Shown here one piece after another: positions 6,870 through 50,523 of a stretch of DNA of 64,000 nucleotides (the stretch's first letter is position 1; each line of letters starts with the position of its first letter). The notes beneath the pieces are model-generated. The model ran no database searches, was not told the DNA's origin, and worked only from the letters and a program-made list of their open reading frames with translations. Origin of the DNA: Flavobacterium lipolyticum (GTDB lineage Bacteria; Bacteroidota; Bacteroidia; Flavobacteriales; Flavobacteriaceae); NCBI RefSeq assembly GCF_020905335.1, contig NZ_JAJJMN010000002.1, forward strand, positions 248,001-312,000, given 5' to 3'. Both the position numbers and the translations under genes were made by a program.

Positions 6870-6875
6870 AAAGAA

Positions 6876-34640: not shown

Positions 34641-36305
34641 ATGAAAAAATGCTATCTGTTACCTATGTTAATTTTATCCTTCTTTGCCTATTCTCAGGAC
34701 ATTCTCTGGGAAAAATCATACGGAGGGCAGCATGCCGATTATTTGTTTGACGCGCAGCCCACAGCCGATTATGGTTTTATCCTGGCAGGTAGTTCCTTAT
34801 CTAACAAAACCGGAAATAAAGACGATGATAATCATGGGGATCTGGATTACTGGATCTGGAAAATGGGTGAAAAAGGAGAACTGGTCTGGCAAAAAAGCAT
34901 TGGCGGAAGCGGCTGTGATTTGCTTCAGAGCATTAAAAACACCAGAGACGGCGGTTTCATTCTGGCTGGGACTTCTGACTCAGGAGTTGGCTTTCAAAAG
35001 AAAGATAGTTGCAAAGGCATTACTGATTTTTGGGTCATCAAATTGGATGCATCGGGTAGTGAACAATGGCAAAGAACTATTGGAGGTACAGGGAAGGATG
35101 AACTCTTATGTGCTTTTCAAACCAAAGACGGAGGTTATATGTTAGGAGGTTCATCCAGTTCCGATTATTCAGGTAATGGACTTACCGGAACAAACAGAAT
35201 TTCTAAGCCCACCACAAAAGCGGCTCAGTTTAATAAATTAGAGAAATGCCGTGGTAACATGGACTACTGGATTGTTAAACTGGACCAACAGGGCGATGTT
35301 GAATGGCAAAAGACCTACGGAGGAGCATATACCGATGTACTGAGAAGCATGGAACAAACCACAGACAATGGCTATATTTTGGCAGGTTATTCTAATTCTC
35401 CTGTTTCAGGGGATAAAACAGAAAATAACAAAGGAGTCGGTGATTACTGGATTATCAAAATAACGGATACCGGCGAAATTCAATGGCAGAAGACCTATGG
35501 AGCCGAAGGAGACGATCAGCCTTATGTCATTCATCAGACTGCCGATGGCGGTTATATTGCGGGCGGAAACTCCAACAGCAAAAATGCTTTGACCACACTG
35601 GGCGGCATAGTAGGCAACGGGACCGATTACTGGATCCTGAAACTCGATAAAGACGGAGGTGTGGTATGGAGTAAAACCTATGATTTTGGAAAAACAGACA
35701 TCCTGACCTCATTGGTAGAAAACCAAGATCAAAGTTACCTCATAGGCGGTTATGCGCAAAGCGAAAGCAGGCGTCCGCGTGAAGGGATCGTAGCCAAAGC
35801 ACTTAACACTGTCAGTAAAGAAAAAGAAGGTATTAACGACTATATCGCGATGAAAATAGACGATAAAGGCGAAGAAATCTGGAACAAAACCGTAGGCAGT
35901 GCCGGTGAAGATATCCTCAGGAAGTTAATCGAAACCCGAGACGGAGGATATCTGATGGCAGGAACCTCAAATTCGGCTTCCTCAAGAGATAAAAATGGCA
36001 GTATGGGAGGCAATGATTTTTGGGTAGTAAAACTCAAAGACAAAACCAAAGTAGAAAAGGTAAAATCCAGCATCGAAGTCATTCCTAATTCTGCTTCAAG
36101 CTATACCAACATCATCATTGGTTATGATTTTAAAGAGGGTACCGCCACACTGATCGACATCGCCGGACGCACCTTACAGGAATTTGACCTCAACAGCAGA
36201 ACCGTTCCCGTTAATCTAAGCCGATACCCTGAGGGAATCTACATCATCAAAGTCAGAACAGATGTGAAAACAGAATCTGTAAAAGTGATTAAAAGTGTAC
36301 GATAA
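34641..36305 (+). CDS. Secreted repeat protein with T9SS type A sorting domain
   Basis: A 554-residue secreted protein. It has a signal peptide (1-18, ending AYSQ), seven to eight repeats of about 55-65 residues of the form WxKxxGGxxxDxLxSxxxTxDGGYILAGxS, likely a beta-propeller, and a C-terminal domain of about 75 residues (YDFKEGTATLIDIAGRTLQEF ... LSRYPEGIYIIKVRTDVKTESVKVIKS) typical of T9SS type A cargo. It is the first gene before the two giant Rhs-type proteins, with gaps of 28 and 24 bp, so probably an operon. It may act as a surface partner of the Rhs system. Confidence 0.88.
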   Translation: MKKCYLLPMLILSFFAYSQDILWEKSYGGQHADYLFDAQPTADYGFILAGSSLSNKTGNKDDDNHGDLDYWIWKMGEKGELVWQKSIGGSGCDLLQSIKNTRDGGFILAGTSDSGVGFQKKDSCKGITDFWVIKLDASGSEQWQRTIGGTGKDELLCAFQTKDGGYMLGGSSSSDYSGNGLTGTNRISKPTTKAAQFNKLEKCRGNMDYWIVKLDQQGDVEWQKTYGGAYTDVLRSMEQTTDNGYILAGYSNSPVSGDKTENNKGVGDYWIIKITDTGEIQWQKTYGAEGDDQPYVIHQTADGGYIAGGNSNSKNALTTLGGIVGNGTDYWILKLDKDGGVVWSKTYDFGKTDILTSLVENQDQSYLIGGYAQSESRRPREGIVAKALNTVSKEKEGINDYIAMKIDDKGEEIWNKTVGSAGEDILRKLIETRDGGYLMAGTSNSASSRDKNGSMGGNDFWVVKLKDKTKVEKVKSSIEVIPNSASSYTNIIIGYDFKEGTATLIDIAGRTLQEFDLNSRTVPVNLSRYPEGIYIIKVRTDVKTESVKVIKSVR

Positions 36306-36333: not shown

Positions 36334-39300
36334 ATGCAAATGAAAAAATCCTTCATTCCTTTTTTGATTTTCGTTTTATTATTAAGTATTTCGAAAACAG
36401 TAGCGCAAAATGATGCTGATAGACAACCACAAATTACACCTCCATATCCTGCAACTGCTGATTTAGGGAATTATGGTAATGTTCCTGTTGGACTTTTTAC
36501 AGGTTCACCTTCAGTAAATTTAGAATTATATACACTTAAAGAAGGTGGAAATACAATTCCTCTGTCGATGTCTTATAATTCAAATGGCGTTCAGGTAGAT
36601 GCAATTCCCAGACAGCTTGGTATAGATTGGAATTTAATAGCTACTGGAGTAATTACTAGAAGTGTAGTGGATCAGCCGGATGATGAAATAGCTTTTTATA
36701 ATGTTGATGCCTCATTGATTGATTGCATTCCAAATGATACCGCTAGGAATATAGCGGGAGCAAATCAGGTTGATACGGAGAAAGATGTTTTTAGTCTGAA
36801 TGCATTTGGGTTGTCTGTCAAATTTATATTTGCAGATGATAGAAGAAATACAATCCAAATTGAACAGAGTAAAATTAAAATTGTTTACGAAGGTGGTTTT
36901 TTTACTGTCATAGACGTTGATGGAACTGTCTATACTTTTGGAGGAACGAATGCTGTTGAAGAGTCACTCAGCAGAAACGAAGGAGTCTCAGGCCCTGTCC
37001 CCCCAGTACAATATAACACCGCCTGGTATCTTACTAAAATTCAAAAGCCAGGTGGAGTATCACCAGTAGTTTTTTCTTATTCTCAAGAATGGATGAGATT
37101 TTACAGCTCTTATTTTCAAAAAGCAGTATCAACTCAACAGAATATACGTAGTACAGGTTATATGAGTGGTATTTCCCAACCAAGAACTCAGACGTATAAG
37201 AACAAACAATATCATAAAACATCATTATTAAAAGAGATAAAAATTAATAATAAGAAAATAATTTTTGATTATGATTATAAAAATCCGCCTGCGGAATTTC
37301 AGAGTCATAATTCAAAACAACTGATTTCTATTAAGGTTTATAATGACACTATCAATTTAGCAAATTCTCTAATTAAAAAAATCGATTTTAATTACGATCA
37401 AATAACACCATCCAATATTGGTGCTAATGGGTATACCAATGTTGATCAGAAATTAATATTTCTGAAAGAAGTGCGAGAACAAGGAAAAAGTTCATCAGCT
37501 GAATTTGTTAAATACTCCTTTGATTATTATCAGCCCGAAAAACTTCCGGCAAGGCATTCATTTGCAAAAGATTTATATGGTTATTTTAATGGAGGTAATG
37601 GGGTAAATGATCTTATTTTTAACAATATCTCTACCAGTACCGTTCCCGGAAATGAGTGTTATTCTTCTCCATTATTTACTGCTTATAAAAGTATTGGTTC
37701 ATTGAGAGCTCCTAATGATTTACATACCTACTGTGGGATGTTGAAATCTATTTATTACCCAACTAAAGGAAAGACAGTTTTGGAGTATGAATCAAATAAA
37801 CTTGTTGCAAATGTTTTTGTGAAAGGGAAAAATGTTTCAACTGTTACGGTTGATTGTATGGATAGTACAACAGGTGTTTCGATTCCCTTCCAAATTGGTA
37901 AAAGGCAGGTTGTTGCTATTTCTGGTAATGTTGGAATAGGTGATGAAGAAGGACTCTGTGAAAATTATTTTGCAGCGCCACACCATGTAACAGGGCAGAA
38001 AGTTGTTGTTAAAATTCTCGATGCGTCTACAGATGCTATTTTGTATTCGTTCGATAATACTCAGGAAAGGGTTATAAATAAAGAAGTATGCCTTGAAGCA
38101 GGTTGGTATAAAATTACGGTGAAAGCTTCAAAGTGCTCTTTTGGTAATGCGTCTATTAAGTTCTTTCCAACTGGGATGGAACCCCATTGGGAAAATAAAG
38201 AAACTTCGATGGCCGGAGTACGAGTTATGCGTACTACTGATTATGATAATAATGGATCTGCGAATGTAAAAAGATATTATTATGGCACTTTGAATAATTT
38301 GGAAACATCTTCGGGGTCATTTGCGACAATTGATCCTTATATAACGGAGAATATAGATGTTTCGGATGTTGATTTAATTGATTTGGGACAATATACAGGA
38401 GATATATCCACTAGAGATTTTGTTAGAACCTTCACTGTAACTTCCAGTCCAAAAAAAACCCTTATTTCATTTGACGGAACAACAATAGGATATAGTTCTG
38501 TAGTAGAGAGCTGGGGTGGGGATCATTTCGAAAATGGAGGTATTGAGAATATTTTTGATGTTCATAGTGACATTGAACCGTTAATGTTATGTCAGGAAAT
38601 TATTAGAAATGTTAACTATTCTAATTCTCATTTAAATGGGAAACTTAGAAAGAAAAGAATCTTTAAAAAAGAAAATAGCTTGGTAAAAAATATATCAGTT
38701 GAACAATATTTTTATGATGCTAAACCCGAGTTAGAATACAGTAAAAATAATTTTGTAGGAATACCTTATTATAGCGCTAAAAATTTCGTACTGTACGTAA
38801 TAAACCAATATTCGATTACAAGCAGATTTAGTTATTTATCAAAGAAAATAGTATCCTCATTTGACATTAAGGGGCAAAATCCTGTGTCAGTAACAACCTT
38901 ATACGATTATGCTAATAATACCCATCTACAGTTAACATCAGAAAGTATTTTAAACTTAAATGAAGAGAAAGAGTTAGAAAAGAAATATTACTATCCTGAT
39001 GATTTATTAAACGAGCCTTTTATGGCCGAGTTAAAAACAGCGAACAGAATCGGTATATCGATAGCTATTGAGAAATATAGGAGAGGAACACTTTTTTCTA
39101 AGGATAAAACAGTTTATGATAAAAGTACGTCAACTAGTAATTTATTGCTTCTAAAAGCGATATATGCAGCTAAGTTTACAAATGAACTCCTTAATATTCC
39201 TAATATAGGTAATCTTGAAAAGAAAATTACTTACGATCAGTATGATGATAAGGGAAACATTTTGCAATATACACCTGAATCAGGAGTACCGGTGTCTATA

Positions 39301-40857
39301 ATCTGGGGATATAATAAAACACAACCTATTGCCAAAATTGAAAATGTATCTTATAGTTCGATCCCGGCAGGAACTATAATAAATTTACAGGAGCTTTCAA
39401 ATGCAGATACTGATAATTGCATGTCAGATGATTGTAGGGAACAGTTATTGAGAGAGGCTTTGAATGCTTTAAGAAATTCTTTTCCAAATAGTTTTATTAC
39501 CACTTATACTTACAATCCACTGCTTGGTGTTACAAGTATAATAGATCCGAAAGGAGTATCTTCTTATTATGAATATGATTCCTTTGGCAGATTGAAATTT
39601 GTAAAAGATCAGGATCTAAATGTAGTTCAAAAATATTGCTACAATTATAAAGGTCAGCAAACGGATTGCAGCGATAATACTTCGGCCAGCGAGTATTTCT
39701 ATAAAAGTGCAGCCAGAAACGGATCGTTTACCAGAAATAATTGTGCTGCAGGAGGAACAGGTCAAATGGTGAGTTACAGTCAGGCGGTTGGGGCGTATAC
39801 GTCTACGATTTCGCAGGCTGATGCGGACAGCAATGGTTTAAATAAATTTAATACTGATGGGCAAGCCTATGCCAATGCAAATGGGACCTGCACTTTTTAC
39901 AGTGCCGCAATAAACCGATCTATTACTAAGAATAACTGCGCGACAGGAGGAGCAGGTTCAAGTATTGTCTATAGTCAGCCGTATGGCGCAGCCTTTTCTA
40001 ATTCTTCACAGGCGGAAGCCGACAGTAAGGGATTAACTAAATTTAATGCTGAAGGACAAAACTTTGCAAATACAAATGGAACTTGTACTTTTTCTAACGT
40101 TAGCATAACAGGAAATTTTACCAAAAACAATTGCGTTGCAGGAGGTGTTGGACAGGTAGTTAGTTATACGCTTCCGGCAGGTTCAAAAACATCGACTGTT
40201 TCCCAAGCCGATGCAGATTCCCAAGCAGCAACCTTATTTAATACAAACGGGCAGGTAAATGCTAACGCTATTGGTTCCTGTATCTTTTCAAGTGCAAGTT
40301 TAACGGGTACATTTACTAAAAATAGTTGCTTTGGAGGAGGTGTGCCACAGGTCGTTAATTATACGCTGTGGGCAGGGGCGAAAACATCGACAGTTTCTCA
40401 GGCTGATGCAAATGCACAGGCAACAGTATTATTTAATGCAAACGGACAGATTTATGCTAATGCTATTGGAACTTGTACCTTTTCTAGTGTAAGCAAGACC
40501 GGTACATTTACTAAAAATAATTGTCCTGTTGAAGGTGTTGGGCAGGTCGTAAGTTATACACTTCCGGCAGGTTCAAAAACATCAACTATTTCTCAGGCTG
40601 ATGCAGATTGGCAGGCATTAGCTTTATTTAATGTAAATGGACAAGCAAAAGCTAATGCGACAAGTATTTGTACTTTTTATAATAAAGCTAAAAGCAGAAT
40701 GTTTGTACTGAGTAAGTGTCCCGAAAAAAGTAATACTACATATACTGTTCCTGCCGGGCAATATTCCTCTACAATTTCACAAGAAGATGCAGATGCAAAA
40801 GCTCAAAAAGATATCAATGCGTTTGGAAAAGATTTCCGTAAAGGGAAATGTTGGTAA
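36334..40857 (+). CDS. Giant Rhs-associated protein with DUF5977 repeats
   Basis: A 1507-residue exported protein with signal peptide (about 1-26, ending TVAQN; the second Met at residue 3 is an equally good start). Residues 30-1110 form a beta-rich region with RHS/YD-like motifs, including GVSSYYEYDSFGRLKFVKDQD near 1075-1095. The C-terminal part is six DUF5977 repeats of about 64 residues (39709-40854), each with a TFTKNNC core, PAGSKTSTISQADADAQA and a second cysteine in CTF. It precedes the toxin-bearing Rhs protein by 24 bp. In such pairs it may help build the shell or anchor it on the surface; that is inference. Confidence 0.85.
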   Translation: MQMKKSFIPFLIFVLLLSISKTVAQNDADRQPQITPPYPATADLGNYGNVPVGLFTGSPSVNLELYTLKEGGNTIPLSMSYNSNGVQVDAIPRQLGIDWNLIATGVITRSVVDQPDDEIAFYNVDASLIDCIPNDTARNIAGANQVDTEKDVFSLNAFGLSVKFIFADDRRNTIQIEQSKIKIVYEGGFFTVIDVDGTVYTFGGTNAVEESLSRNEGVSGPVPPVQYNTAWYLTKIQKPGGVSPVVFSYSQEWMRFYSSYFQKAVSTQQNIRSTGYMSGISQPRTQTYKNKQYHKTSLLKEIKINNKKIIFDYDYKNPPAEFQSHNSKQLISIKVYNDTINLANSLIKKIDFNYDQITPSNIGANGYTNVDQKLIFLKEVREQGKSSSAEFVKYSFDYYQPEKLPARHSFAKDLYGYFNGGNGVNDLIFNNISTSTVPGNECYSSPLFTAYKSIGSLRAPNDLHTYCGMLKSIYYPTKGKTVLEYESNKLVANVFVKGKNVSTVTVDCMDSTTGVSIPFQIGKRQVVAISGNVGIGDEEGLCENYFAAPHHVTGQKVVVKILDASTDAILYSFDNTQERVINKEVCLEAGWYKITVKASKCSFGNASIKFFPTGMEPHWENKETSMAGVRVMRTTDYDNNGSANVKRYYYGTLNNLETSSGSFATIDPYITENIDVSDVDLIDLGQYTGDISTRDFVRTFTVTSSPKKTLISFDGTTIGYSSVVESWGGDHFENGGIENIFDVHSDIEPLMLCQEIIRNVNYSNSHLNGKLRKKRIFKKENSLVKNISVEQYFYDAKPELEYSKNNFVGIPYYSAKNFVLYVINQYSITSRFSYLSKKIVSSFDIKGQNPVSVTTLYDYANNTHLQLTSESILNLNEEKELEKKYYYPDDLLNEPFMAELKTANRIGISIAIEKYRRGTLFSKDKTVYDKSTSTSNLLLLKAIYAAKFTNELLNIPNIGNLEKKITYDQYDDKGNILQYTPESGVPVSIIWGYNKTQPIAKIENVSYSSIPAGTIINLQELSNADTDNCMSDDCREQLLREALNALRNSFPNSFITTYTYNPLLGVTSIIDPKGVSSYYEYDSFGRLKFVKDQDLNVVQKYCYNYKGQQTDCSDNTSASEYFYKSAARNGSFTRNNCAAGGTGQMVSYSQAVGAYTSTISQADADSNGLNKFNTDGQAYANANGTCTFYSAAINRSITKNNCATGGAGSSIVYSQPYGAAFSNSSQAEADSKGLTKFNAEGQNFANTNGTCTFSNVSITGNFTKNNCVAGGVGQVVSYTLPAGSKTSTVSQADADSQAATLFNTNGQVNANAIGSCIFSSASLTGTFTKNSCFGGGVPQVVNYTLWAGAKTSTVSQADANAQATVLFNANGQIYANAIGTCTFSSVSKTGTFTKNNCPVEGVGQVVSYTLPAGSKTSTISQADADWQALALFNVNGQAKANATSICTFYNKAKSRMFVLSKCPEKSNTTYTVPAGQYSSTISQEDADAKAQKDINAFGKDFRKGKCW
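39709..40854 (+). repeat. Six tandem DUF5977 repeats
   Basis: Units of about 190-200 bp encode related 64-residue repeats, each with paired cysteines. Units three to five are most similar to each other at DNA level, pointing to recent duplication. The last unit is shorter and ends KGKCW. Confidence 0.85.
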
Positions 40858-40881: not shown

Positions 40882-43800
40882 ATGACTCTTATGAAAATAT
40901 ATATAGCAGGAGTAATTTTACTATTCTTTATAAGTGAGAGTATCAAAGCTCAAACTTTAAGCAATGGCAACTTTATATACACCCTAAGTCCTAAAAAACC
41001 GGTTAAAGCAGCAAATCTAAGTACGCTGACCAAGGACGAAATGAGTCAGACTGTAACCTATTTTGACGGATTAGGCCGTCCGATACAAACCATTGCCATC
41101 GGTCAGGGAACAGGAGACAAAGACATTGTAACCCCTATGGAGTATGATGACTTTGGCCGGCAAGTCAAAGAATACCTGCCGTATGCAGTGGCCAATGGAA
41201 GCAACAGTTACCCCATGATCGACCCGAAAACAGCTATAAGTGCAGCAACCATCTTTTATGGTAAATCGGAATACGATAATACCTCAAATCCTTTCTCTCA
41301 AAAAGCATTTGAACCATCACCATTGAACCGCGTTTTAAAACAAGCTGCTCCGGGAGCTTCGTGGGAAATGGGCAAAGGCCATGAAATTAAAATCGATTAC
41401 CAGGCCAATACCGATGTGGATGCGGTAAAACTCTACAAAGCCAATACTACTTGGGACGCAGGTTTAGGATTGTACGACATTAGTTTTACTGATGCAGGAA
41501 CCTATGCGGAAGGAAGACTCTATAAAACGATTACGCACGATGAAAATACAACTGCAACCCCAAGCGAAAGTGCCGGTTCGACGGTAGAATTTAAAAATAC
41601 CGAAGGGCAGGTTATCTTAAAAAGAACCTACAATTCAGGCAATCCACATGATACGTACTACGTTTACGATATTTATGGGAATCTGACCTATGTATTGCCC
41701 CCAAAAGTATCGGGTGCAGTTAATGACGAGATTCTAAACGGATTGTGTTACCAGTACAAATACGACTACCGCAATCGTCTGGTCGAGAAAAAACTGCCCG
41801 GAAAACAATGGGAGTTTATAGTGTACGACAAACTCGATCGTCCCGTAGCCACAGGACCGGCTTTTTCACCTTTTAAAGATGAAACTGCCGAAGGCTGGCT
41901 CATTACCAAATACGACGCCTTTAGCAGACCTGTTTATACGGGCTGGAGCAGTCAAACCTCAAATTCAGCTACCAGAAAGGCATTACAGGATGCCCAAAAT
42001 ACCGCTGCCGTTTTATTTGAAACGAAACAAAGTTCAGGAACCATAGACGATATACCGGTATACTACAGCAATAACATTGCTCCAACGAAATTTAAACTTT
42101 TAACCGTTACCTATTACGACAATTATAATTATCCTAATGCAGCTGTTAAGCCTACAACTATTGAAGATCAGACCGTTTTAGACAATGCCAAAGGTCTGGT
42201 AACCGGAAACTGGACAAGAGCCTTAACCACTGCCTCAGAAACATCAGGAGAAACCACCACTACCTTTTACGATCGAAAAGCCAGAGCAGTGAGTACTCGA
42301 ACTCAGAATTATTTAAGCGGTTATACCAATACCGACAGCAAACTAGATTTTATTGGAAAGTCACTCTATACCATCACCAAACACAAACGTACCTCAGGAG
42401 ATACCGAGCTCATCATAAGAGAAGAATACACCTATTCGCCGCAGGATCGTTTGCTGACGCACACCCACCAAATCAATGGCGGAACAGTAGAACTTTTGGC
42501 AGATAACACTTATGATGACTTAGGACAATTGATCGTTAAAAATGTAGGGAACAACACAGCAAGCCCTTTGCAGAAAGTACATTATAGGTACAACATTAGA
42601 GGCTGGCTTACCGGAATCAACAATGTGGAGAACCTACAGCAAGATACGGACCCGGTGGATTTGTTTGCCTTTAAGATTAATTACGACAAACAGCCGGGTA
42701 ATTCACAGGTTCAGGCTTTGTACAACGGAAATATTTCAGAAACCTATTGGAAGACCAACACCGATCTTACCAAGCGTTCCTATGGGTATCAGTACGACAA
42801 TCTGAATCGTTTAACCAGTGCAATTTACAGTAAACCCAATGATGCTATTCCGATTTCAGGGGCCTATAACGAAAGTTTGAGTTATGATAAAAACGGAAAC
42901 ATTAAATCTTTGCAGCGATATGGAACCAGTGATGCACCGTCTATTGTTTTTCAAACAGATGATTTGACTTATGATTATTTAAATGAAAACTCCAATCAAC
43001 TGACCAGAGTAACCGACGGTACTGCCGGAAATGACAACGAGGGTTTTATAGATGCTAATAAAATCGGGGATGATTTTACCTATGATGCCAATGGAAATAT
43101 GATTACCGATAAAAACAAAAACATTACTTCTATCACTTACAACCACTTGAATTTACCTCTAAAAATTACCTTTGCGACCACCGGAAATATTGAGTACATT
43201 TACAATGCCAATGGCGTAAAACTAAGTAAAACGGTTAATAAAGGCACTTGTATCACTACCATTACAGACTATTTAGGAGGATTTCAATATGAAAGTATGG
43301 CCAACAAATGCACAAGGGCAGGAAGAGGATATACCGGAGTTCTGAAGTTTTTCCCAACTGCTGAAGGTTATGTAGAGCCTTCAGGAAGTTCTTATAAATA
43401 TATCTATCAATACAAAGATCACTTAGGTAACATACGATTGAGTTATACTAAAAATCCGGCAACCCAAGTTCTTACTATTATTGACGAGAATAATTATTAT
43501 CCTTTTGGATTGAAACACAAGGGGTATAATGATTATGTAGCTGCTAGTAATAAGTATAAGTACAACGGGAAAGAACTCCAAGATGAACTAGGACTTAACA
43601 TGTACGCAATGGATATTCGTCAATATGACCCAGCTATAGGTAGGTGGACAGTAATTGACCCCGTTACACATCATACAGAATCACCATATAGTGCATTTAA
43701 TAATAACCCTGTATTTTGGAAAGACCCAAGTGGAGCAGATAGTCAAATATCAGATTTAGTTAAAAAACTTTGGGATTTGACGCCTGATGATGGCAATGTT

Positions 43801-44463
43801 TATACTTATACTTTTAATAATGAAGACCCAAAAAAGAAAACGACAACAGATGCAGGTCATGGTGATAAAACTGGCTGTTGTGTTGACCCTGGTACAATAG
43901 ATGGTTCTGAATATGAAAAAGATTATGCCTTAAAAGTTGAACAATCCGTCAATAGTTGGTTAAATGAATGGGGTATAGATAATCAAAGTACTAGAACAGG
44001 GGACATAGATAAATCAGGACAAAAAAAAATTGCTTGGAGATTAAAAGCAGCTAAAAATCATGGTTCAATTATAATGGTTAGTATTCATATAGATTCAGGT
44101 GGTAAAGATGGTCTTTTTGCTATCTATGATAAAGATAATTTAGAATCTAAATCATTAGCTATGAAAATAGCAAGTAGTTACACATTTGGATTAGGAGACG
44201 CTGATGGCATTAAAGAGGATGTTAGAAATTTAGGTATAGTCCAAAGATTCTCCGGAAAAGCATCTGTTTTATTGGAATTAGGAGGTATTGCAAATAAAAA
44301 CATGAGAGATAGAATAAATACTAACTCAAATTTGATGGGCTATGATATAGCAAGAGGTATGTATTTATACCTAAATGGAGTAGAACCGCCTACGCCCCAA
44401 ACGAACAAAGCACCTGCAACAACATCACCATGGCCAGAAATGTTTAATCCTTTTAAATTTTAA
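40882..44463 (+). CDS. Rhs polymorphic toxin with C-terminal amidase_3 domain
   Basis: A 1193-residue exported Rhs/YD-repeat protein: signal peptide (1-24, ending IKAQ), a DUF6443-type N-terminal region (about 30-160), YD repeats (VYDIYGNLTYVLPP, EYTYSPQDRLLTHTH, YQYDNLNRLTSA and others), and the core-end motif KDHLGNIRLSYTKN to DPAIGRWTVIDPVTHHTESPYSAFNNNPVFWKDPSG. After this conserved boundary (about residue 950) comes a zinc N-acetylmuramoyl-L-alanine amidase domain with DAGHG (H993), EKD (E1012), SIHIDS (H1069) and LLELGG (E1132), all ligand and catalytic residues present. The toxin would cut peptidoglycan. A lipoprotein gene follows 2 bp later as likely immunity. Some caution: delivery route is unproven. 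Confidence 0.9.
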   Translation: MTLMKIYIAGVILLFFISESIKAQTLSNGNFIYTLSPKKPVKAANLSTLTKDEMSQTVTYFDGLGRPIQTIAIGQGTGDKDIVTPMEYDDFGRQVKEYLPYAVANGSNSYPMIDPKTAISAATIFYGKSEYDNTSNPFSQKAFEPSPLNRVLKQAAPGASWEMGKGHEIKIDYQANTDVDAVKLYKANTTWDAGLGLYDISFTDAGTYAEGRLYKTITHDENTTATPSESAGSTVEFKNTEGQVILKRTYNSGNPHDTYYVYDIYGNLTYVLPPKVSGAVNDEILNGLCYQYKYDYRNRLVEKKLPGKQWEFIVYDKLDRPVATGPAFSPFKDETAEGWLITKYDAFSRPVYTGWSSQTSNSATRKALQDAQNTAAVLFETKQSSGTIDDIPVYYSNNIAPTKFKLLTVTYYDNYNYPNAAVKPTTIEDQTVLDNAKGLVTGNWTRALTTASETSGETTTTFYDRKARAVSTRTQNYLSGYTNTDSKLDFIGKSLYTITKHKRTSGDTELIIREEYTYSPQDRLLTHTHQINGGTVELLADNTYDDLGQLIVKNVGNNTASPLQKVHYRYNIRGWLTGINNVENLQQDTDPVDLFAFKINYDKQPGNSQVQALYNGNISETYWKTNTDLTKRSYGYQYDNLNRLTSAIYSKPNDAIPISGAYNESLSYDKNGNIKSLQRYGTSDAPSIVFQTDDLTYDYLNENSNQLTRVTDGTAGNDNEGFIDANKIGDDFTYDANGNMITDKNKNITSITYNHLNLPLKITFATTGNIEYIYNANGVKLSKTVNKGTCITTITDYLGGFQYESMANKCTRAGRGYTGVLKFFPTAEGYVEPSGSSYKYIYQYKDHLGNIRLSYTKNPATQVLTIIDENNYYPFGLKHKGYNDYVAASNKYKYNGKELQDELGLNMYAMDIRQYDPAIGRWTVIDPVTHHTESPYSAFNNNPVFWKDPSGADSQISDLVKKLWDLTPDDGNVYTYTFNNEDPKKKTTTDAGHGDKTGCCVDPGTIDGSEYEKDYALKVEQSVNSWLNEWGIDNQSTRTGDIDKSGQKKIAWRLKAAKNHGSIIMVSIHIDSGGKDGLFAIYDKDNLESKSLAMKIASSYTFGLGDADGIKEDVRNLGIVQRFSGKASVLLELGGIANKNMRDRINTNSNLMGYDIARGMYLYLNGVEPPTPQTNKAPATTSPWPEMFNPFKF
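43363..43606 (+). repeat. Rhs core-end repeat R0 (within active gene)
   Basis: The 244-bp parent copy of a sequence encoding EGYVEPSGSSYKYIYQYKDH through ELQDELGLNMY. It recurs at 45214, 46860 and 48449 with the same 244-bp length and no indels, and truncated at 50244. Confidence 0.93.
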
Positions 44464-44465
44464 AT

Positions 44466-45056
44466 ATGAAAATAGAAAAATCATTATTGTTTATTTTTAT
44501 TATTTTATTAAATTCATGTAACTCACAAAATCATAATTCAAAAAAAGCGCTAATAAATAGTAGCAAAGTTGATGTTTTAACCGTAAATAGAGTAAAGGCT
44601 TTTTATTTTATGAACAAAATGGACAAATCTATTACAGCATTTGTAAAACTGGATACTATCAATCCAATAGATTTAGATGAAGTAATTGAAGAAAATTTAA
44701 AACTAAGTCCAAATTCATTTACAATTGAAATTAATAAAAAAATTATCGAACTTAATTTTAATGAGAAAATAAACAGGTGGATTAAGATAAAAAGTCAAAT
44801 AGATAATGCTATTGATAAAAGTGAAAATGTGGATTATTTAGAGTTTTTTTACAAAAATTCAAAAACAAATAAATTATTTAATAAGTATGTAACAAATAAA
44901 ATTTCACAAGATTGGGGTAGTTTATCAAGTTCAGATAGTTATAATGTATACTTTGATATAATAACGACTATATCTGATTTAGATAATAAAAATGAAAAAG
45001 AAGTAATTTCAAGTTTTTATCATTTTATGGAAGTATCATCAATTCCTAAAGATTAA
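44466..45056 (+). CDS. Putative immunity lipoprotein to the amidase toxin
   Basis: A 196-residue protein with a lipoprotein signal (lipobox LLNSC, C18). The rest is Lys/Asn/Glu-rich with no family I recognise. It starts 2 bp after the amidase-bearing Rhs gene on the same strand, the usual place for immunity. A periplasm-facing lipoprotein is what would be needed to block a peptidoglycan amidase. GC content is clearly lower than the Rhs body, typical of exchangeable toxin-immunity modules. Confidence 0.7.
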   Translation: MKIEKSLLFIFIILLNSCNSQNHNSKKALINSSKVDVLTVNRVKAFYFMNKMDKSITAFVKLDTINPIDLDEVIEENLKLSPNSFTIEINKKIIELNFNEKINRWIKIKSQIDNAIDKSENVDYLEFFYKNSKTNKLFNKYVTNKISQDWGSLSSSDSYNVYFDIITTISDLDNKNEKEVISSFYHFMEVSSIPKD

Positions 45057-45213
45057 AATAAGTAGCATTTCCTTTTATACTTCTGATTTAATTGAATATT
45101 CATAAAATACTCCGAGTAGTTCTTTATGAAAGCTATGGGAATGTTTCCTGACTTAACACCCACAAACCAACTAAAATCCATTCCTTATTCAGAGTGGCTT
45201 TTTCCCAACTGCT

Positions 45214-45457
45214 GAAGGTTATGTAGAGCCTTCCACAGGTTCTTACAAATATGTGTATCAATACAAAGATCACTTAGGTAACATACGATTGAGTTATACT
45301 AAAAATCCGGCAACCCAAGTTCTTACTATTATTGAAGAAAATAATTATTATCCTTTTGGATTGAAACACAAGGGGTATAATGATTATGTTGCTACTAGTA
45401 ATAAGTATAAGTACAACGGCAAGGAACTCCAAGACGAGTTGGGGCTTAACATGTACG
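45214..45457 (+). repeat. Rhs core-end repeat R1 (orphan cassette 1)
   Basis: A 244-bp near-copy of 43363-43606. Homology begins slightly upstream, at 45198 (CTTTTTCCCAACTGCTG also precedes R0). An in-frame stop lies just before the homology, so the cassette has no own start or signal peptide. Confidence 0.93.
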
Positions 45458-46314
45458 ATTATGGAGTAAGGAATTATGATCCTGCGATTGGGAGATGGAT
45501 GAATATTGACCCATTAGCAGAAATATCAAGAAGATTCTCTCCATATACTTATGCACTTGATAATCCAGTATTTTTTATAGACCCAGATGGTAGAAAAGCT
45601 GAAGCTGGACAATCTGGAAATTATTATGATTGGGATGAAGGAATTTACAAAAATAAGGATACGGGAGAACAAGTAGATGCTAATGTGGCTATTGCAAGTC
45701 ATACCAATGATATTGACCCACCCAAAAAAGGAAGTTCTTGGGGAGATAAATTTAGAAGTATGGCGGACTCAGCTAGTAAATGGGTTGATAATGCTTTTGG
45801 TAACGATGCTAGACAGATGGCAGATAATGCTAGTCAATGGGCAACGGATTATAGTGAAGCTCATTCGAGTATAGGTGCAGGTGATATTTGGGCTAGGCAG
45901 ATGGAACCTATCAAAGAGCTTTACGAATTAGGCTTAGGTGCGACGGGTGTAGGAATATCAAATACCAGAAGTTTTGCAAAATTTGCACCAGAAGGCTATA
46001 CTGTTGCGGCAGAAAAGTTTGATTATTTCTTTGGAAAAGTTAATTCTTCACCTGATAATATGAGAAGGTCTTTGCAGAATTTGAGTGATTTAAAAGAAAT
46101 GGGCTTAGCTTCTAAAGGTGCGTTGATAAGAATGTTTAATAAAGCATTTTCTTCTGGGACTGAAATAAGCACGAAGTTTACTCCGCATGGAACAACAATA
46201 ACAAAACAGGTACAAGTTGGTGAGCATGCGTTAAATGTAGGCTTTTTCTATAAAGCGGGCAATATGGATGCTACTCCAGCTGTAACAACTATTATTCCTA
46301 AATTAAAACATTAA
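45253..46314 (+). CDS. Orphan Rhs toxin cassette 1
   Basis: A 353-codon frame; the open frame begins near 45198, and the marked start is only an in-frame GTG inside the Rhs core, so it is probably silent as it stands. It holds the end of the Rhs core, DPAIGRWMNIDPLAEISRRFSPYTYALDNPVFFIDPDG, then a 250-residue toxin region. The last 100 residues (YFFGKVNSSPDNMRRSLQNL to ALNVGFFYKAGNMDATPAVTTIIP) resemble small nuclease-type toxin tips of polymorphic toxins, though I cannot name the family. A paired gene follows at 46317. Confidence 0.75.
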   Translation: MYQYKDHLGNIRLSYTKNPATQVLTIIEENNYYPFGLKHKGYNDYVATSNKYKYNGKELQDELGLNMYDYGVRNYDPAIGRWMNIDPLAEISRRFSPYTYALDNPVFFIDPDGRKAEAGQSGNYYDWDEGIYKNKDTGEQVDANVAIASHTNDIDPPKKGSSWGDKFRSMADSASKWVDNAFGNDARQMADNASQWATDYSEAHSSIGAGDIWARQMEPIKELYELGLGATGVGISNTRSFAKFAPEGYTVAAEKFDYFFGKVNSSPDNMRRSLQNLSDLKEMGLASKGALIRMFNKAFSSGTEISTKFTPHGTTITKQVQVGEHALNVGFFYKAGNMDATPAVTTIIPKLKH

Positions 46315-46316
46315 AT

Positions 46317-46778
46317 ATGAATATTAAATTTGAAAGAATAAAGAAAGCTGAATTTAAAAATAAGCAAAATTCTATTGTTTTATTCGAGAAAATATCAGAT
46401 GATAATTTCGGAGAGATTCAATCGAATGGATGTATTTTTCAATTTGGTTGGAGAGGAGATTTTATTTTGCCTGTTGTAAAAGAGATTGATTCGATGAGAT
46501 TTGGTTTAGGAGTTGACTTTAATTTTATTATTGTAGATAGTGAAAAAAAAGAAATTATATATAAAATAGAATTAGATGACTACTTTATTAATTTTATTGT
46601 TATCGGTAATGTGATTTATATTGCTTCTGAACTAAAAGTAATTCAACTAAGGATAGATAATTTTGAAATTTTAAATGAGTTTTATTTACCTGAAATATTT
46701 GATGATTTTGTTATAACAAATGATTCAATTATGGCTTCATGTATAGACAATCAAAGCATCAATTTGAATAACTTTTAA
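46317..46778 (+). CDS. Putative immunity protein, cassette 1
   Basis: A 153-residue cytoplasmic, beta-strand-rich acidic protein without signal peptide or recognised family. It starts 2 bp after the cassette 1 toxin stop, as expected for its immunity gene. A cytoplasmic location fits a toxin acting on nucleic acid inside the cell. It is AT-rich compared with the Rhs core. Confidence 0.68.
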   Translation: MNIKFERIKKAEFKNKQNSIVLFEKISDDNFGEIQSNGCIFQFGWRGDFILPVVKEIDSMRFGLGVDFNFIIVDSEKKEIIYKIELDDYFINFIVIGNVIYIASELKVIQLRIDNFEILNEFYLPEIFDDFVITNDSIMASCIDNQSINLNNF

Positions 46779-46785
46779 CATACAA

Positions 46786-46859
46786 CCCCCCGCTGGCGCG
46801 AGCGTCCCGCTCGTGAACGCAAAGAAAATCGATAAAGAATATAAAAGCCCCGAACTGCC
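46786..46859. repeat. GC-rich linker repeat L1
   Basis: A 74-bp unit starting CCCCCGCTGGCGCGAGCG, with hairpin CGAGCG-TCC-CGCTCG, then GAACGCAAAGAAAATCGAT and ending at the cassette 2 core repeat. It recurs at 48374 and 50171. It is far more GC-rich than its surroundings. Its reverse strand gives the familiar spurious HERDARASGG peptide, so it is a dispersed repeat, not a gene. Confidence 0.9.
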
Positions 46860-47103
46860 GAAGGTTATGTAGAGCCTTCAGGAAGTTCTTATAAATATAT
46901 TTATCAATACAAAGATCACTTAGGTAATATTCGTTTGAGTTACACGAAAAATCCGGCAACCCAAGTTCTTACCATTATTGACGAGAATAATTATTATCCT
47001 TTTGGATTGAAACACAAGGGGTATAATGATTATGTACCTACAAGTAATAAGTATAAGTACAATGGAAAGGAGCTTCAAGACGAGCTGGGGCTTAACTTCT
47101 ACG
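46860..47103 (+). repeat. Rhs core-end repeat R2 (orphan cassette 2)
   Basis: A 244-bp near-copy of R0, following linker L1 with no gap. Variants include FYDYGARNYDPALGRW just after it. Confidence 0.93.
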
Positions 47104-47957
47104 ATTATGGAGCTAGGAATTATGACCCTGCGCTTGGTAGGTGGATGAACGTTGATCCGTTAGCGGAGCAAATGAGAAGACACTCACCTTATAACTATGC
47201 ATTTAATAATCCTGTATATTTTCTTGATCCTGATGGAATGGCACCTGATGATTGGATACAAAGAAAAGGAAAAGACGGTAAAAGTACTTTTTTCTTTGAT
47301 GCGAGTGTTAAAACGCAAGAACAAGCCACAGCCGCATATGGAAATGATGTTAATATAGTAAAAGAAGGTACTAAAACTATGAGTATGAGTGATGGTAAGG
47401 CTGATGGTCGTTATTCATATACATATCACAATGATGGTAGTGTTACCGATGGAAATAATCAAAATGTTACTTTTTCTGATACTAAGATTGAAACTGAAGG
47501 GGGTACAACTATTGTAAATCCTGCTCATAAAGATGGAACTTTTTCAGGTATCTCTATGGGAGGAGCACTTGGAGGAGGAATTTCTTTAGAAGCTGGAATT
47601 GTAAATGATCCTACAGGTAGTAGTGCTTTATATTTTTCTTTTGGAGGAAATTCAGGACTTGGTGGTGGTTACGGTGCTAAAGGAGGAGCTATAACTCCAA
47701 CAGCTTCAAATCCTTTTTCCGTTAATGATTTTGCAGGAAAAGGAAATTCTTTTAGCGCGGGTATTGAATCTCCTATTGGTGGATATAGTATTGAAAGAGG
47801 CGGAACGCAGGGAAATAGTTTTTCGAATTATGGAACTGTGACGCAAGACAATGCACGACCATATACTTATACAGCAGGAAGCGTTGGCTCAAAGAGCTCG
47901 TTAAGTGTAGGAGCAATGGCTAGTGAAACAAAAACATGGATCTTTAAATATAATTAA
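46935..47957 (+). CDS. Orphan Rhs toxin cassette 2
   Basis: A 340-codon frame (nominal TTG start inside the core repeat; frame opens near 46850). After YDPALGRWMNVDPLAEQMRRHSPYNYAFNNPVYFLDPDG comes a 260-residue Gly/Ser/Thr-rich tail with GGALGGGISLEAGIV and SFGGNSGLGGGYGAKGGAI. No catalytic motif is seen. The Gly-rich beta pattern could insert into membranes, in line with the single-TM partner gene, but this is speculation. No own promoter or signal peptide. Confidence 0.7.
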   Translation: MSYTKNPATQVLTIIDENNYYPFGLKHKGYNDYVPTSNKYKYNGKELQDELGLNFYDYGARNYDPALGRWMNVDPLAEQMRRHSPYNYAFNNPVYFLDPDGMAPDDWIQRKGKDGKSTFFFDASVKTQEQATAAYGNDVNIVKEGTKTMSMSDGKADGRYSYTYHNDGSVTDGNNQNVTFSDTKIETEGGTTIVNPAHKDGTFSGISMGGALGGGISLEAGIVNDPTGSSALYFSFGGNSGLGGGYGAKGGAITPTASNPFSVNDFAGKGNSFSAGIESPIGGYSIERGGTQGNSFSNYGTVTQDNARPYTYTAGSVGSKSSLSVGAMASETKTWIFKYN

Positions 47958-47959
47958 AA

Positions 47960-48349
47960 ATGAAAAATGAAGGGTTTGAGTTATCAGCTAAACAATTAAA
48001 AGTTATTTTAACTGTTGTAACAATTATATTTGTGATTTTTCTCATGTATAATTTTTTTATTTTAGACAACAGAGAGAAATTACTTGATACCTCATTAAAA
48101 AATATTCAAGAGGAAAATTATCAAGGATTTGTAATTAATAAAAACTATGACAAAGACAATCATAATTCTCCAATGATATATTTAAAAAATGAAACTAAAG
48201 TTGCTGTATTTGGTGAGTTTTGGTCTAAAATAGAAATTGGAGATTCTATCGTAAAGAAAAAAGGAGAAACAGTTATTACAGTTTACAGAAATAATGAAAA
48301 ATTTATATTAGATAATCAAGAAATTATTAATGGTTTAAAAAAGAAATAA
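47960..48349 (+). CDS. Putative immunity protein, cassette 2
   Basis: A 129-residue protein with one strong TM segment at about 14-33 (VILTVVTIIFVIFLMYNFFIL) and a soluble C-terminal domain of about 90 residues, probably outside the cytoplasm. It starts 2 bp after the cassette 2 toxin stop. The membrane anchor suggests the toxin acts at the inner membrane or periplasm. Confidence 0.68.
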   Translation: MKNEGFELSAKQLKVILTVVTIIFVIFLMYNFFILDNREKLLDTSLKNIQEENYQGFVINKNYDKDNHNSPMIYLKNETKVAVFGEFWSKIEIGDSIVKKKGETVITVYRNNEKFILDNQEIINGLKKK

Positions 48350-48373
48350 TTTCTGCACTCCGCTGTTCGAAGT

Positions 48374-48448
48374 CCCCCGCTGGCGCGAGCGTCCCGCTCG
48401 TGAACGCAAAGAAAATCGATAGAGAATATAAAAGAGCCCCGAACTGCC
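48374..48448. repeat. GC-rich linker repeat L2
   Basis: Second copy of the linker at 46786, one or two bases longer (GATAGAGAATATAAAAGAGC). It again joins directly to a core repeat. Confidence 0.9.
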
Positions 48449-48692
48449 GAAGGTTATGTAGAGCCTTCTGCAGGTTCTTATAAATATATCTATCAATACA
48501 AAGATCATTTGGGTAACATACGATTGAGTTATACTAAAAATCCAGCAAGCCAAGTTCTTACCATAATTGACGAGAATAATTATTATCCTTTTGGATTGAA
48601 ACACAAGGGGTATAATGATTATGAAGCTGCTAGTAATAAGTATAAGTTCAATGGAAAAGAACTGCAGGACGAGCTAGGGCTTAACATGTACG
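48449..48692 (+). repeat. Rhs core-end repeat R3 (orphan cassette 3)
   Basis: A 244-bp near-copy of R0, directly after linker L2. Confidence 0.93.
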
Positions 48693-49501
48693 ATTATGGA
48701 GCAAGGAATTATGATCCTGCGATTGGGAGGTGGATGAATATGGATTCTAAAACTGAAGCTTATTATCCGATATCACCATACCAGTATGTACTTAATAACC
48801 CTGTTGTTAATATTGATGTTAAAGGAGAATGGACAGTTACGAGACACTATAATTTGACTTATAATTCACTTGCCGCAGCTGGAATAGGAAAAGTACAAGC
48901 TAATTTATTAGCGCATTATGTATCAGTATATGCAGATAATCCAGGAAGCCACATAAATGCAAATAATATGGCACATCCAACTAATCAGAAATTTTATTCG
49001 CCATATATTGATTATTCGGGTACTTCAAATTCGCAGGTTACCGATTATACAGGTAAAGGATATAATTATAATATTTGGCATTCTATGCGTTCAGAATGGG
49101 AAGAAGACAATAATACAATTTCGGCTCATGATGCAACCGAAAGGGGGATGGAATTTGGATGGGACAAAATTTTCCAATCAGCCGAAGAAGGACAACTTAA
49201 GGATTTAAAAGCAAATAGTAAAGGAATTGAAGCTTTTGGACAAGGTGTACACGCGCTACAAGATGCGTATGCACATAAAGGGCGTTCAGATGTTGGTGTA
49301 GGGCATTTGTGGAATGATAGATATGGCGATACATCAGGTGCACAAAGAATTTCGGACTCAGCAATTACGGTTCACAATATTATGTCTGGTAATTGGAAAG
49401 CTTTTGAAGGTAAAGAAGAAATAAAATTTGATGCAAATGGTATGACTAAGAATCAATTTGCAAAAGCAATGGAACAAATTAATAAATATTTAAATCAGTA
49501 A
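48509..49501 (+). CDS. Orphan Rhs toxin cassette 3, phospholipase C-like
   Basis: A 330-codon frame (nominal TTG start inside the core repeat). After YDPAIGRWMNMDSKTEAYYPISPYQYVLNNPVVNIDVKGEW comes a toxin region of about 250 residues rich in His and Asp: TRHYNLTYNSLAAAGI, NNMAHPTNQ, YNIWHSMRSEWEED, and GQGVHALQDAYAHKG. The H-x-LQD-x-x-AH pattern is like zinc-dependent phospholipase C / S1-P1-type folds, where it supplies zinc ligands. A lipid-cleaving toxin would agree with the multi-TM partner at 49506. No own promoter. Confidence 0.72.
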   Translation: MGNIRLSYTKNPASQVLTIIDENNYYPFGLKHKGYNDYEAASNKYKFNGKELQDELGLNMYDYGARNYDPAIGRWMNMDSKTEAYYPISPYQYVLNNPVVNIDVKGEWTVTRHYNLTYNSLAAAGIGKVQANLLAHYVSVYADNPGSHINANNMAHPTNQKFYSPYIDYSGTSNSQVTDYTGKGYNYNIWHSMRSEWEEDNNTISAHDATERGMEFGWDKIFQSAEEGQLKDLKANSKGIEAFGQGVHALQDAYAHKGRSDVGVGHLWNDRYGDTSGAQRISDSAITVHNIMSGNWKAFEGKEEIKFDANGMTKNQFAKAMEQINKYLNQ

Positions 49502-49505
49502 AATT

Positions 49506-49883
49506 ATGACGAAATTAATTAGGATTTTTAGTGTACTATTAGTAATATTCTCATTAGGAATGATTATTTTATTTGGTGCTTCAGGTCATAAATTCGACTT
49601 GAATAAACATGATAATCAAGTTTATCTACTCTTTATTCTCTTGTACTTGTCATCAGCAATTGTTTTGTTTTTTTCTTTATATAAAGAAAGTCTAATAATG
49701 AAAAGAATTGCAGTTACTCTTTTATTCTTGATTTTGATTTCATTCATATATTTATTTTATGAGATAGTTTCAATTACAATAGGCGATTTTTCCGCGATAA
49801 TACCAATAATTTTTAGTTTAGTTATTATTTATATGGATATAAAAATTTTGTCAATTCTAATTAGTAGTAATCCTAATGTCTAG
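49506..49883 (+). CDS. Putative membrane immunity protein, cassette 3
   Basis: A 125-residue integral membrane protein with four predicted TM segments (about 7-25, 38-58, 66-86, 94-116) and few soluble residues. It starts 4 bp after the cassette 3 toxin stop. A membrane-embedded immunity protein is expected if the toxin attacks phospholipid. Confidence 0.7.
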   Translation: MTKLIRIFSVLLVIFSLGMIILFGASGHKFDLNKHDNQVYLLFILLYLSSAIVLFFSLYKESLIMKRIAVTLLFLILISFIYLFYEIVSITIGDFSAIIPIIFSLVIIYMDIKILSILISSNPNV

Positions 49884-49907
49884 TCCTGAAATATCGGTAA
49901 ACAAAAA

Positions 49908-50061
49908 TTGCCTTTGCAAGCCCTAGATCAATTGTGTACATTTACAACGTTGCGAGACAAAAACTTTGAAAAACTGTAAACGAAACCTGTAAACCTGCTA
50001 CTACAACCGGTTGTCTGTTTGGTTATCAGTATGATAACGATGCTTTAGAGTTTATTAAAAA
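49908..50061 (+). pseudogene. Decayed Rhs core fragment
   Basis: Read in the frame from 49908 it gives IAFA..SIVYIYNVARQKL-stop-KTVNETCKPATTTG..GYQYD, which aligns to the active gene's ITFATTGNIEYIYNANGVKLSKTVNKGTC..GGFQYE (about 43162-43290). An internal TGA replaces the serine. It covers the stretch just upstream of the 244-bp repeat, which the other cassettes do not retain, and is much more diverged than they are. Confidence 0.75.
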
Positions 50062-50170
50062 TTGGGTTATGATTATAGACTTAGCTATAACATTAATTAT
50101 TTTTTTTCTGAAAGCATTATAATATATAATTTTTTAAATATAAATTTTCAAGAAATAAATAACTACATAG

Positions 50171-50243
50171 CCCCCGCTGGCGCGAGCGTCCCGCTCGTGA
50201 ACGCAAAGAAAATCGATAAAGAATATAAAAGCCCCGAACTGTG
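50171..50243. repeat. GC-rich linker repeat L3
   Basis: Third copy of the linker at 46786, joined to the truncated core repeat of cassette 4. The preceding stretch 50062-50170 is AT-rich with no supported gene. Confidence 0.9.
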
Positions 50244-50523
50244 GAAGGTTATGTAAGAGCCTTCAGGAAGTTCTTATAAATATATCTATCAATACAAGGA
50301 TCACTTAGGTAATATACGATTAAGTTATGCTAAAAATCCGGTGACTCAGGTTCTTACCATTATTGACGAGAATAATTATTATCCTTTTGGATTGAAACAC
50401 AAGGGATATAATGATTATGTAGCTACTAGTAATAAGTTAAAGTTTTATTCAATTAATAAAAGAAGGTTTAGGAATAAGAAGTTCAGTAAGAATATTGAAA
50501 ATATCAGCTACTACAACATTTAA
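50244..50523 (+). pseudogene. Truncated Rhs cassette 4
   Basis: The core repeat is present for about 194 bp, with one inserted A near 50254 (GTAAGAGCC for GTAGAGCC) that shifts the frame. After YVATSNK it departs into KLKFYSINKRRF.. and stops at 50521. The toxin and immunity genes are missing. The tail may be the remnant of a toxin end joined by deletion. Confidence 0.8.

What the first reader, a model, noticed from the sequence alone, without database searches (positions are those of the whole stretch)
43363..50523. Rhs toxin-tip array with exactly repeated 244-bp recombination blocks
One complete Rhs gene is followed by three orphan toxin/immunity cassettes and one broken one. Each intact cassette begins with a copy of the Rhs core-end sequence of exactly 244 bp (43363, 45214, 46860, 48449), without indels, and the toxin sequence diverges just past it. 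The orphan frames lack a signal peptide, a credible start codon and a promoter. Rhs toxin-tip displacement and orphan cassettes are known in Enterobacteria; this looks like a long Bacteroidota example where homologous exchange could switch the toxin.
Basis: partly seen in the sequence, partly recalled or inferred. Interest (0 to 1): 0.85.

Follow-up and report, generated by a model that had tools for sequence, protein, structure and literature searches.

The report
Swappable toxin tips in a Flavobacterium
This bacterium carries a large secreted toxin gene followed by spare toxin-and-antidote ends, and a close relative carries one of those spares joined to a full-length gene, so the toxin end appears to be swapped by DNA recombination, as is already known in other bacteria.

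Summary
In detail: a full-length, signal-peptide-bearing Rhs gene with an amidase tip is followed by three orphan toxin/immunity cassettes and one broken copy, each starting with a Rhs core-end copy. The four intact blocks are equal in length (244 nt) but only 89-93% identical, so "exactly repeated" is true of length, not sequence. The same genome has three more such arrays. Recombination is well supported. Third-codon-position identity in the block is 0.75 within an array and 0.45 between genomes, while the adjacent core tail shows 0.49 and 0.45. The window's third orphan tip is joined to a full-length Rhs core in the close relative Flavobacterium sp. UGB4466 (98.7% identical over the first 150 nt past the crossover, block only 91% like the orphan's), and a 79% identical tip is attached in a second species. 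Main-gene cores about 785 kb apart share an exact 1601-bp tract. This is Rhs C-terminal displacement with orphan cassettes, known from Enterobacteria and bee-gut bacteria, here documented in Flavobacterium. It is a new member of a known kind. Silence of the orphans, delivery route and toxin activities remain inferred.

The parts
34641..36305 (+). Secreted protein with a Por_Secre_tail (T9SS sorting) domain, upstream of the Rhs genes; a homologue precedes the Rhs genes at locus C
   Evidence: Pfam PF18962 at E 7.1e-6, 26.7 bits, just under its cut-off of 27; homologue at locus C in the ORF list; the UGB4466 copy of locus A is 92-93% identical to locus C
36334..40857 (+). Rhs-like partner protein, 1507 aa, with DUF5977 repeats
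   Evidence: PF19404, 6 stretches, E 2.9e-122; 195-nt repeats
40882..44463 (+). Full-length Rhs (main) gene: signal peptide (read by eye), DUF6443, Rhs core, Amidase_3 tip (A1)
   Evidence: PF20041 and PF01520; TIGR03696
41029..42629 (+). 1601-bp tract identical to the main Rhs gene of array B, about 785 kb away on the same contig
43363..43606 (+). Core-end block of the main gene (A1)
44466..45056 (+). Putative lipoprotein immunity gene for the amidase tip
   Evidence: position, and lipobox-like start read in the sequence; no Pfam match
45175..46311 (+). Orphan cassette A2 (repeat from 45204, tip from about 45592)
   Evidence: TIGR03696
46317..46778 (+). Putative immunity gene of A2
   Evidence: position; no Pfam match
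46785..46865 (+). Hairpin-containing linker before A3; the full linker was found only before six orphans of arrays A and B
46845..47954 (+). Orphan cassette A3 (block from 46860, tip from about 47241)
   Evidence: TIGR03696
47960..48349 (+). Putative membrane immunity gene of A3
   Evidence: position and hydrophobic stretch read in the sequence; only Pfam matches under their cut-offs
48374..48454 (+). Linker before A4
48404..49498 (+). Orphan cassette A4 (block 48449-48692, tip from 48827); attached to full-length Rhs genes in UGB4466 (98% aa), G110 (79%) and, as a more distant relative, Aquaticitalea (54%)
48639..48699 (+). Inferred crossover zone of A4: identity passes from own-core type to foreign-tip type
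49506..49883 (+). Putative membrane immunity gene of A4, also found behind the attached tip in UGB4466 and G110
49903..49983 (+). Decayed piece of Rhs core downstream of the A4 immunity gene, shared with UGB4466
50171..50523 (+). Linker plus broken fifth core-end copy (A5); the part from 50366 on is also present in UGB4466 (99.2% over 10 kb with the right flank)

Best explanation
It is a Rhs locus with C-terminal displacement. One exported Rhs gene carries the current toxin tip and its immunity gene. Displaced or stored tip/immunity cassettes, each led by a fragment of the Rhs core end, lie silent downstream. Homologous recombination inside the core-end block, just upstream of the tip-specific core tail, joins a different tip and its immunity gene to the full-length gene, or brings in new ones from other strains. 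Shown: the anatomy, the identity breakpoints, the same cassette orphan here and attached in a close relative, and identical tracts between main-gene cores of different loci. Inferred: that the main gene is expressed and the orphans are silent, that recombination is RecA-type homologous exchange, that the tips are antibacterial toxins, and how they are delivered.
For: Four such arrays in one genome. Block third-position identity 0.75 in the same array, 0.72 in other arrays of the same genome, 0.45 in other genomes; adjacent core tail 0.49, 0.49, 0.45; block exceeds tail in 17 of 19 stretches that hold a pair. All 55 of 55 same-array pairs show an identity drop, 46 of them 68-292 nt before the tip start. 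The A4 block is 92-98% like its own main gene in the first 180 nt and then falls to 78% and 54%; against the G110 main gene it is 55-78% there, then 90% for 60 nt and 60-88% through the tip. UGB4466 joins the A4 tip and immunity gene to a full-length core: 98.7% A4-like over the first 150 nt past the crossover, but the block before it only 90.9% A4-like. In other species, G105 and G151 main genes are 42-75% identical through the core, then 92-100% from 180 nt before the tip start. Cores of arrays A and B share an exact 1601-bp tract, C and D one of 1430 bp. All 9 A/B blocks carry the A/B core form and all 7 C/D blocks the C/D form.
Against: No within-population swap was seen. UGB4466 is a draft whose contig C192 (locus A, left side) shares a 77-nt end overlap with C80, so its A and B cores may be collapsed: whether the A4 tip sits at locus A, B or both is not certain, and a chimeric join inside the block is not wholly excluded. 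The 40 nt before the UGB4466 crossover fit no G000 copy well (A3 87.5%, A4 and A2 85.0%). The amidase tip has no orphan counterpart in 299 genomes, and the A4 tip is rare: 4 of 299 genomes, one of them the own genome and two with only distant matches. Two of 19 stretches do not show the block/tail contrast. In 9 of 55 pairs the drop lies at the tip start itself (-25 to +11), as mere tip difference would give.
Confidence: 0.87

Rival explanations
1. The array is mainly an archive of immunity genes: displaced tips are dead, and the downstream immunity genes, read through from upstream or from their own starts, protect against relatives' toxins.
For: Each intact orphan has a downstream gene with its own ATG. 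The scan found only one + strand terminator-like site in the array, before A2, and its total is no more than shuffles give. The B4 immunity gene is kept in UGB4466 (99.5% over 1517 nt including it) although no match to the B4 tip was reported there.
Against: Orphan tips A2-A4 keep long open frames, and A4 is attached to full-length genes elsewhere. The two readings are compatible.
Confidence: 0.3
2. Tandem duplication of a whole Rhs gene end followed by divergence, without exchange.
For: Equal block lengths and similar spacing within the array: 1851, 1646, 1589, 1796.
Against: Tips of the window's array found no similarity to each other (blastp, E 1e-4) while blocks are alike. The core tail next to the block is nearly as diverged within an array as between genomes. 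The A4 cassette is shared with other genomes across a breakpoint.
Confidence: 0.04
3. Orphan frames are stand-alone expressed toxins.
For: Open frames of 365-379 aa between stops. In A2 and A4 an in-frame ATG in the last 7 nt of the block could start the tip. I raised this from 0.06 to 0.08 when I rechecked that call.
Against: No signal peptide on such a product (read by eye), and A3 has no ATG until past its block. The promoter scans do not help either way.
Confidence: 0.08
4. The cassette order or the UGB4466 junction is an assembly artefact across repeats.
For: UGB4466 contigs break at Rhs repeats, some with 77-nt end overlaps.
Against: G000 has only 7 contigs and the four arrays differ in content. 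A related tip is also attached in G110, a one-contig assembly, and the breakpoint falls in the same zone in both comparisons.
Confidence: 0.06

Closest known systems
Rhs C-terminal displacement in Enterobacteriaceae (Jackson et al. 2009, PMC2935791; passages seen, including part of the abstract)
   Same: Strings of dissociated tips with core fragments downstream of an intact rhs gene; core fragments of the same clade as the main gene; tips attached in one strain and dissociated in another.
   Different: Flavobacterium; core fragments of nearly fixed length in arrays A and B, with a shared hairpin linker before six orphans; long identical tracts between cores of different loci.
Main/orphan rhs rearrangement in Salmonella LT2 (Koskiniemi et al. 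2014, PMC3967940; passages seen, including the abstract)
   Same: Orphan lacks start and export signals; a repeat (522 bp, 95%) allows fusion of the orphan tip to the main gene; the orphan toxin is found on full-length genes in other strains.
   Different: That switch was selected in the laboratory; here only natural strains are compared. The block is shorter (244 nt) and less alike (about 92%).
Rhs orphan arrays in bee gut bacteria (PMC8125069; passages seen)
   Same: Arrays of orphaned 3' ends with immunity genes; recombination as driver.
   Different: Those are T6SS effectors. The main protein here has a signal peptide (by eye) and no T6SS domain match in Pfam.
Polymorphic toxin cassettes (Zhang et al. 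2012, PMC3482391; 12 passages seen)
   Same: Toxin/immunity cassettes exchanged at the 3' end; RHS carriers in Bacteroidetes listed.
   Different: General survey; 'Flavobacteri' does not occur in the part of its main text that is held.
TANFOR polymorphic toxins of Bacteroidetes (PMC7073777; passages seen, including part of the abstract)
   Same: Bacteroidota toxins with T9SS substrates encoded nearby.
   Different: No TANFOR match in the two main and eight orphan proteins scanned with NCBIfam (the upstream partner genes were not scanned there); 'orphan' does not occur in that paper's main text.

Membership tests
Rhs/YD-repeat polymorphic toxin | Rhs-associated core domain followed by a variable C-terminal tip | tested here: met
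   TIGR03696 in 10 of 10 main and orphan proteins scanned; no tip similarity within the window's array
Rhs/YD-repeat polymorphic toxin | Tip followed by an immunity gene of its own | tested here: inconclusive
   A4 tip and the same downstream gene together in three genomes; for A1-A3 by position only. Immunity function not tested
Rhs C-terminal displacement array | Intact gene followed on the same strand by orphan core-fragment/tip/immunity units | tested here: met
   Window and three other own-genome loci; 15 of 45 examined stretches in all, stretches chosen for high scores or clustering
[quoted passage not shown]
   9 of 9 A/B copies and 7 of 7 C/D copies
Rhs C-terminal displacement array | The same tip attached in one strain and orphan in another | tested here: met
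   A4: orphan in the window, attached in UGB4466 as assembled (98% aa); relatives attached in G110 (79%) and Aquaticitalea (54%)
Rhs C-terminal displacement array | Observed recombination that expresses an orphan tip | not testable with these tools
   needs culture
T6SS Rhs effector | N-terminal T6SS (PAAR or similar) domain | tested here: not met
   Only DUF6443, Amidase_3 and a sub-threshold RHS_repeat found in Pfam; signal peptide read by eye. The genome was not searched for T6SS genes
T9SS substrate | C-terminal sorting domain on the toxin | tested here: not met
   Of 10 proteins scanned only the neighbour 34641-36305 has Por_Secre_tail, just under its cut-off

The most novel reading that the evidence does not exclude
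The four arrays act as one dispersed exchange system. Core genes are kept recombinable by gene conversion between loci about 785 kb apart, and cassettes led by a fixed hairpin linker plus block multiply and move between arrays A and B as ready-made modules, so that each strain renews much of its toxin set while the flanks stay 97-99% identical.
Probability: 0.3. Interest if true: 0.62.

Novelty: new member of a known kind. Interest (0 to 1): 0.47.

Why it matters
It gives strain-level and genus-level sequence evidence that Rhs toxin tips are exchanged by recombination at a defined core-end window in Flavobacterium, outside the Enterobacteria and bee-gut bacteria of the papers I saw on this process. 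It also shows long identical tracts between cores of different loci, which would keep exchange possible. UGB4466 and its close relatives make the switch directly testable by long-read sequencing. In eight full-text searches of the open-access library I saw no listed paper whose title or abstract start describes such Flavobacterium arrays; two of the lists were cut (20 of 45 shown; 15 of 43), and most subscription journals are not held there.

Tried and rejected
Amidase tip as the marker of exchange: 2 of 299 genomes match, one of them the own genome and the other weak (32% over about 105 aa), so it gives no test.

Hairpin as a dedicated recombination site: rejected as a requirement. The hairpin is a genus-wide repeat (58 of 150 genomes including the own one, up to 1 mismatch), is absent before the first orphan A2, and is not part of the C and D blocks, though one weak 29-nt match lies in array D (E 0.009). 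The full 81-nt linker was found only before six orphans.

Promoters and terminators: counts not clearly above shuffles.

Toxin function of A2-A4: no Pfam family above its cut-off and no PADLOC match. Against solved structures A2 has one weak match to a CdiA chain (E 0.017) and A4 none; A3 was not searched there. A4 looks to me like a zinc-dependent phospholipase C-type protein from its conserved histidines; that is recalled resemblance, not a test. Structure prediction was requested five times and the machine was busy each time.

Assigning the UGB4466 A4 tip to locus B: as assembled it continues from locus B's flank, but the probably collapsed core makes locus A possible.

Absence of cassettes in UGB4466: these searches scored only 40 of 67, 40 of 127 and 40 of 131 first-look candidates, the genome is a draft, and the query held only the last 162 nt of the B1 tip. 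So absence is shown only to that depth, and hardly for the B1 tip.

Prevalence: the 45 stretches (5 own, 40 picked from the list for high score or clustering) give no prevalence estimates. One search dropped 6 of 99 core-end hits (short or partial). One search used 78 sequences, UGB4466 counted as another genome.
Full report
Observation. A full-length Rhs gene (40882-44463) is followed by three orphan cassettes and a broken fifth copy. The main protein has DUF6443 near its N-terminus and an Amidase_3 tip. The four intact core-end blocks are 244 nt each without indels and 89.3-92.6% identical; the fifth is 79-83% identical and has indels. Before the end of the block the orphan frames offer only GTG or TTG codons, except for an ATG in the last 7 nt of the block in A2 and A4; A3's first ATG lies beyond its block.

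The same genome. G000 (5.77 Mb, 7 contigs) carries 18 matches to the block: 5 in the window's array A, 4 in array B (main + 3 orphans), 2 in C (main + 1), 5 in D (main + 4), and 2 at a further site on C1 with one orphan and one fragment. A/B blocks and C/D blocks form two core types without mixing, 9 of 9 and 7 of 7. Main-gene cores of A and B are 97.9% identical and share an exact 1601-bp tract (window 41029-42629). Of the 71 mismatched positions, 41 lie in the first 147 nt; the last ten come from how I cut the sequences. C and D share an exact 1430-bp tract, and A/B against C/D is about 80%. I read the tracts as recent gene conversion or recombination between loci.

The genus. 81 of 150 same-genus genomes, the own one included, have a match to the core end. 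From that list I fetched 40 stretches, which with five own-genome stretches make 45. 15 of these 45 show a main gene followed on the same strand by orphan(s), in 7 genomes. They were chosen for high scores or clustering, so this is not a prevalence.

Is the block more alike than core conservation demands? Third codon positions of 78 sequences were compared. In the block, identity is 0.75 within an array (55 pairs), 0.72 between arrays of a genome (133) and 0.45 between genomes (2815). In the 48 codons directly downstream it is 0.49, 0.49 and 0.45. Block exceeded tail in 17 of 19 stretches that hold a pair; the exceptions are G022 L059 and G149 L052. All 55 of 55 same-array pairs have a drop in identity of more than 0.2, with a median 141 nt before the tip start; 46 lie between -292 and -68, the other 9 between -25 and +11. 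A drop somewhere is expected because the tips differ; what speaks for recombination is that most drops lie upstream of the tip, in the core.

The exchange of A4. Among 93 tips, several orphan tips resemble attached tips elsewhere. The clearest is the window's third orphan (A4): 79% identical to the attached tip of G110 over the whole tip, with the same downstream gene. Along the DNA, A4 is 92-98% like its own main gene for the first 180 nt of the block while 55-78% like G110. From 48639 its likeness to its own main gene falls to 78% and 54%, while that to G110 is 90% for 60 nt and then 60-88% through the tip. In 299 genus genomes, the own one included, the A4 tip occurs in 4; only G110 has it at high identity and in a long frame.

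A close relative. The named-genome scan found Flavobacterium sp. UGB4466 (isolate from rainbow trout larvae), 97% identical over residues 14-365 of the orphan frame. Its stretch L100 follows the left flank and core of G000's array B at 97.8%, then carries the A4 tip and immunity gene (96.96% over 5997-7541) in an open frame of 1184 aa. Over L100:5997-6226 it is 95.2% like A2, 94.3% like A1 and 90.9% like A4; over 6251-6400 it is 98.7% like A4 and at most 62.7% like any other copy; the 40 nt between 6211 and 6250 fit no copy well (A3 87.5%, A4 and A2 85.0%). The crossover therefore falls at about window 48653-48693, inside the zone found with G110. Parts of both flanks of loci A and B exist in UGB4466 at 97-100% identity. 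No match was reported there for the tips and immunity genes of A1, A2 and A3, for the B1 and B2 immunity genes, or for the B2 and B4 tips; B3 has one weak match (70% over 120 nt), and the B4 immunity gene is present. These searches scored 40 candidates each, and the B1 tip was hardly in the query, so this absence is provisional. Caveat on the junction: the assembly is a draft. Contig C192 (locus A) ends with a 77-nt overlap into C80, so the A and B cores are probably collapsed and the A4 tip could be at A, B or both. Aquaticitalea lipolytica has a related attached tip (54%, frame of 1346 aa).

Other species. Main genes of G105 and G151 are 42-75% identical through the core, then 92-100% from 180 nt before the tip start and 90-97% through the tip. 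Orphan D2 matches its own main gene at 93-100% from -660 to -180 and then drops.

Linker. An 81-nt linker with a hairpin precedes A3, A4, A5, B2, B3 and B4 (93-100% identical to the A3 copy); at the other places matched with E below 0.001 only its first 30-60 nt recur. The hairpin is a genus repeat. A5 and B3 share the same extra base in the block. This suggests one junction that later multiplied with its cassettes, inferred rather than shown.

Mechanism. The anatomy matches the published model of C-terminal displacement (PMC2935791, passages seen) and the main/orphan fusion selected in Salmonella (PMC3967940, passages seen). Shown here: breakpoints and orphan/attached states. Inferred: silence, recombination pathway, toxicity, delivery. 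T6SS delivery is not supported by the domains found, and the T9SS link rests only on a neighbour gene just under the Pfam cut-off.

Verdict. Real, well explained, and a new member of a known kind, with clear comparative evidence for Flavobacterium.

Noticed in passing
window 41029-42629 and array B (L021): Main Rhs cores of two loci about 785 kb apart share an exact 1601-bp tract; the cores of C and D share 1430 bp exactly.
   Followed up: yes
window 46787-46827, 48374-48414, 50171-50211: Hairpin repeat found in 58 of 150 same-genus genomes (own included), in several listed genomes as close inverted pairs; looks like a REP-type element.
   Followed up: partly
window 36334-40857: 1507-aa partner of the Rhs gene with DUF5977 repeats of 195 nt; a similar gene precedes the main gene at locus C, but I saw none directly upstream at loci B and D.
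   Followed up: partly
window 49903-50070: Decayed remnant of Rhs core, resembling the longer core fragments that lead some orphans of arrays C and D.
   Followed up: partly
L021:6916-7341: The immunity gene of cassette B4 is kept in UGB4466 (99.5% over 1517 nt including it) while no match to the B4 tip was reported there; the contig ends at that point.
   Followed up: partly
L023:8475-11084: A further orphan Rhs end on another contig (C1), with a tip 77% identical to an orphan in G148.
   Followed up: partly
L021:7345-8061 and window 48827-49498: The B4 and A4 tips both have weak, sub-threshold matches to DUF6765 (E 0.00016 and 0.23).
   Followed up: no
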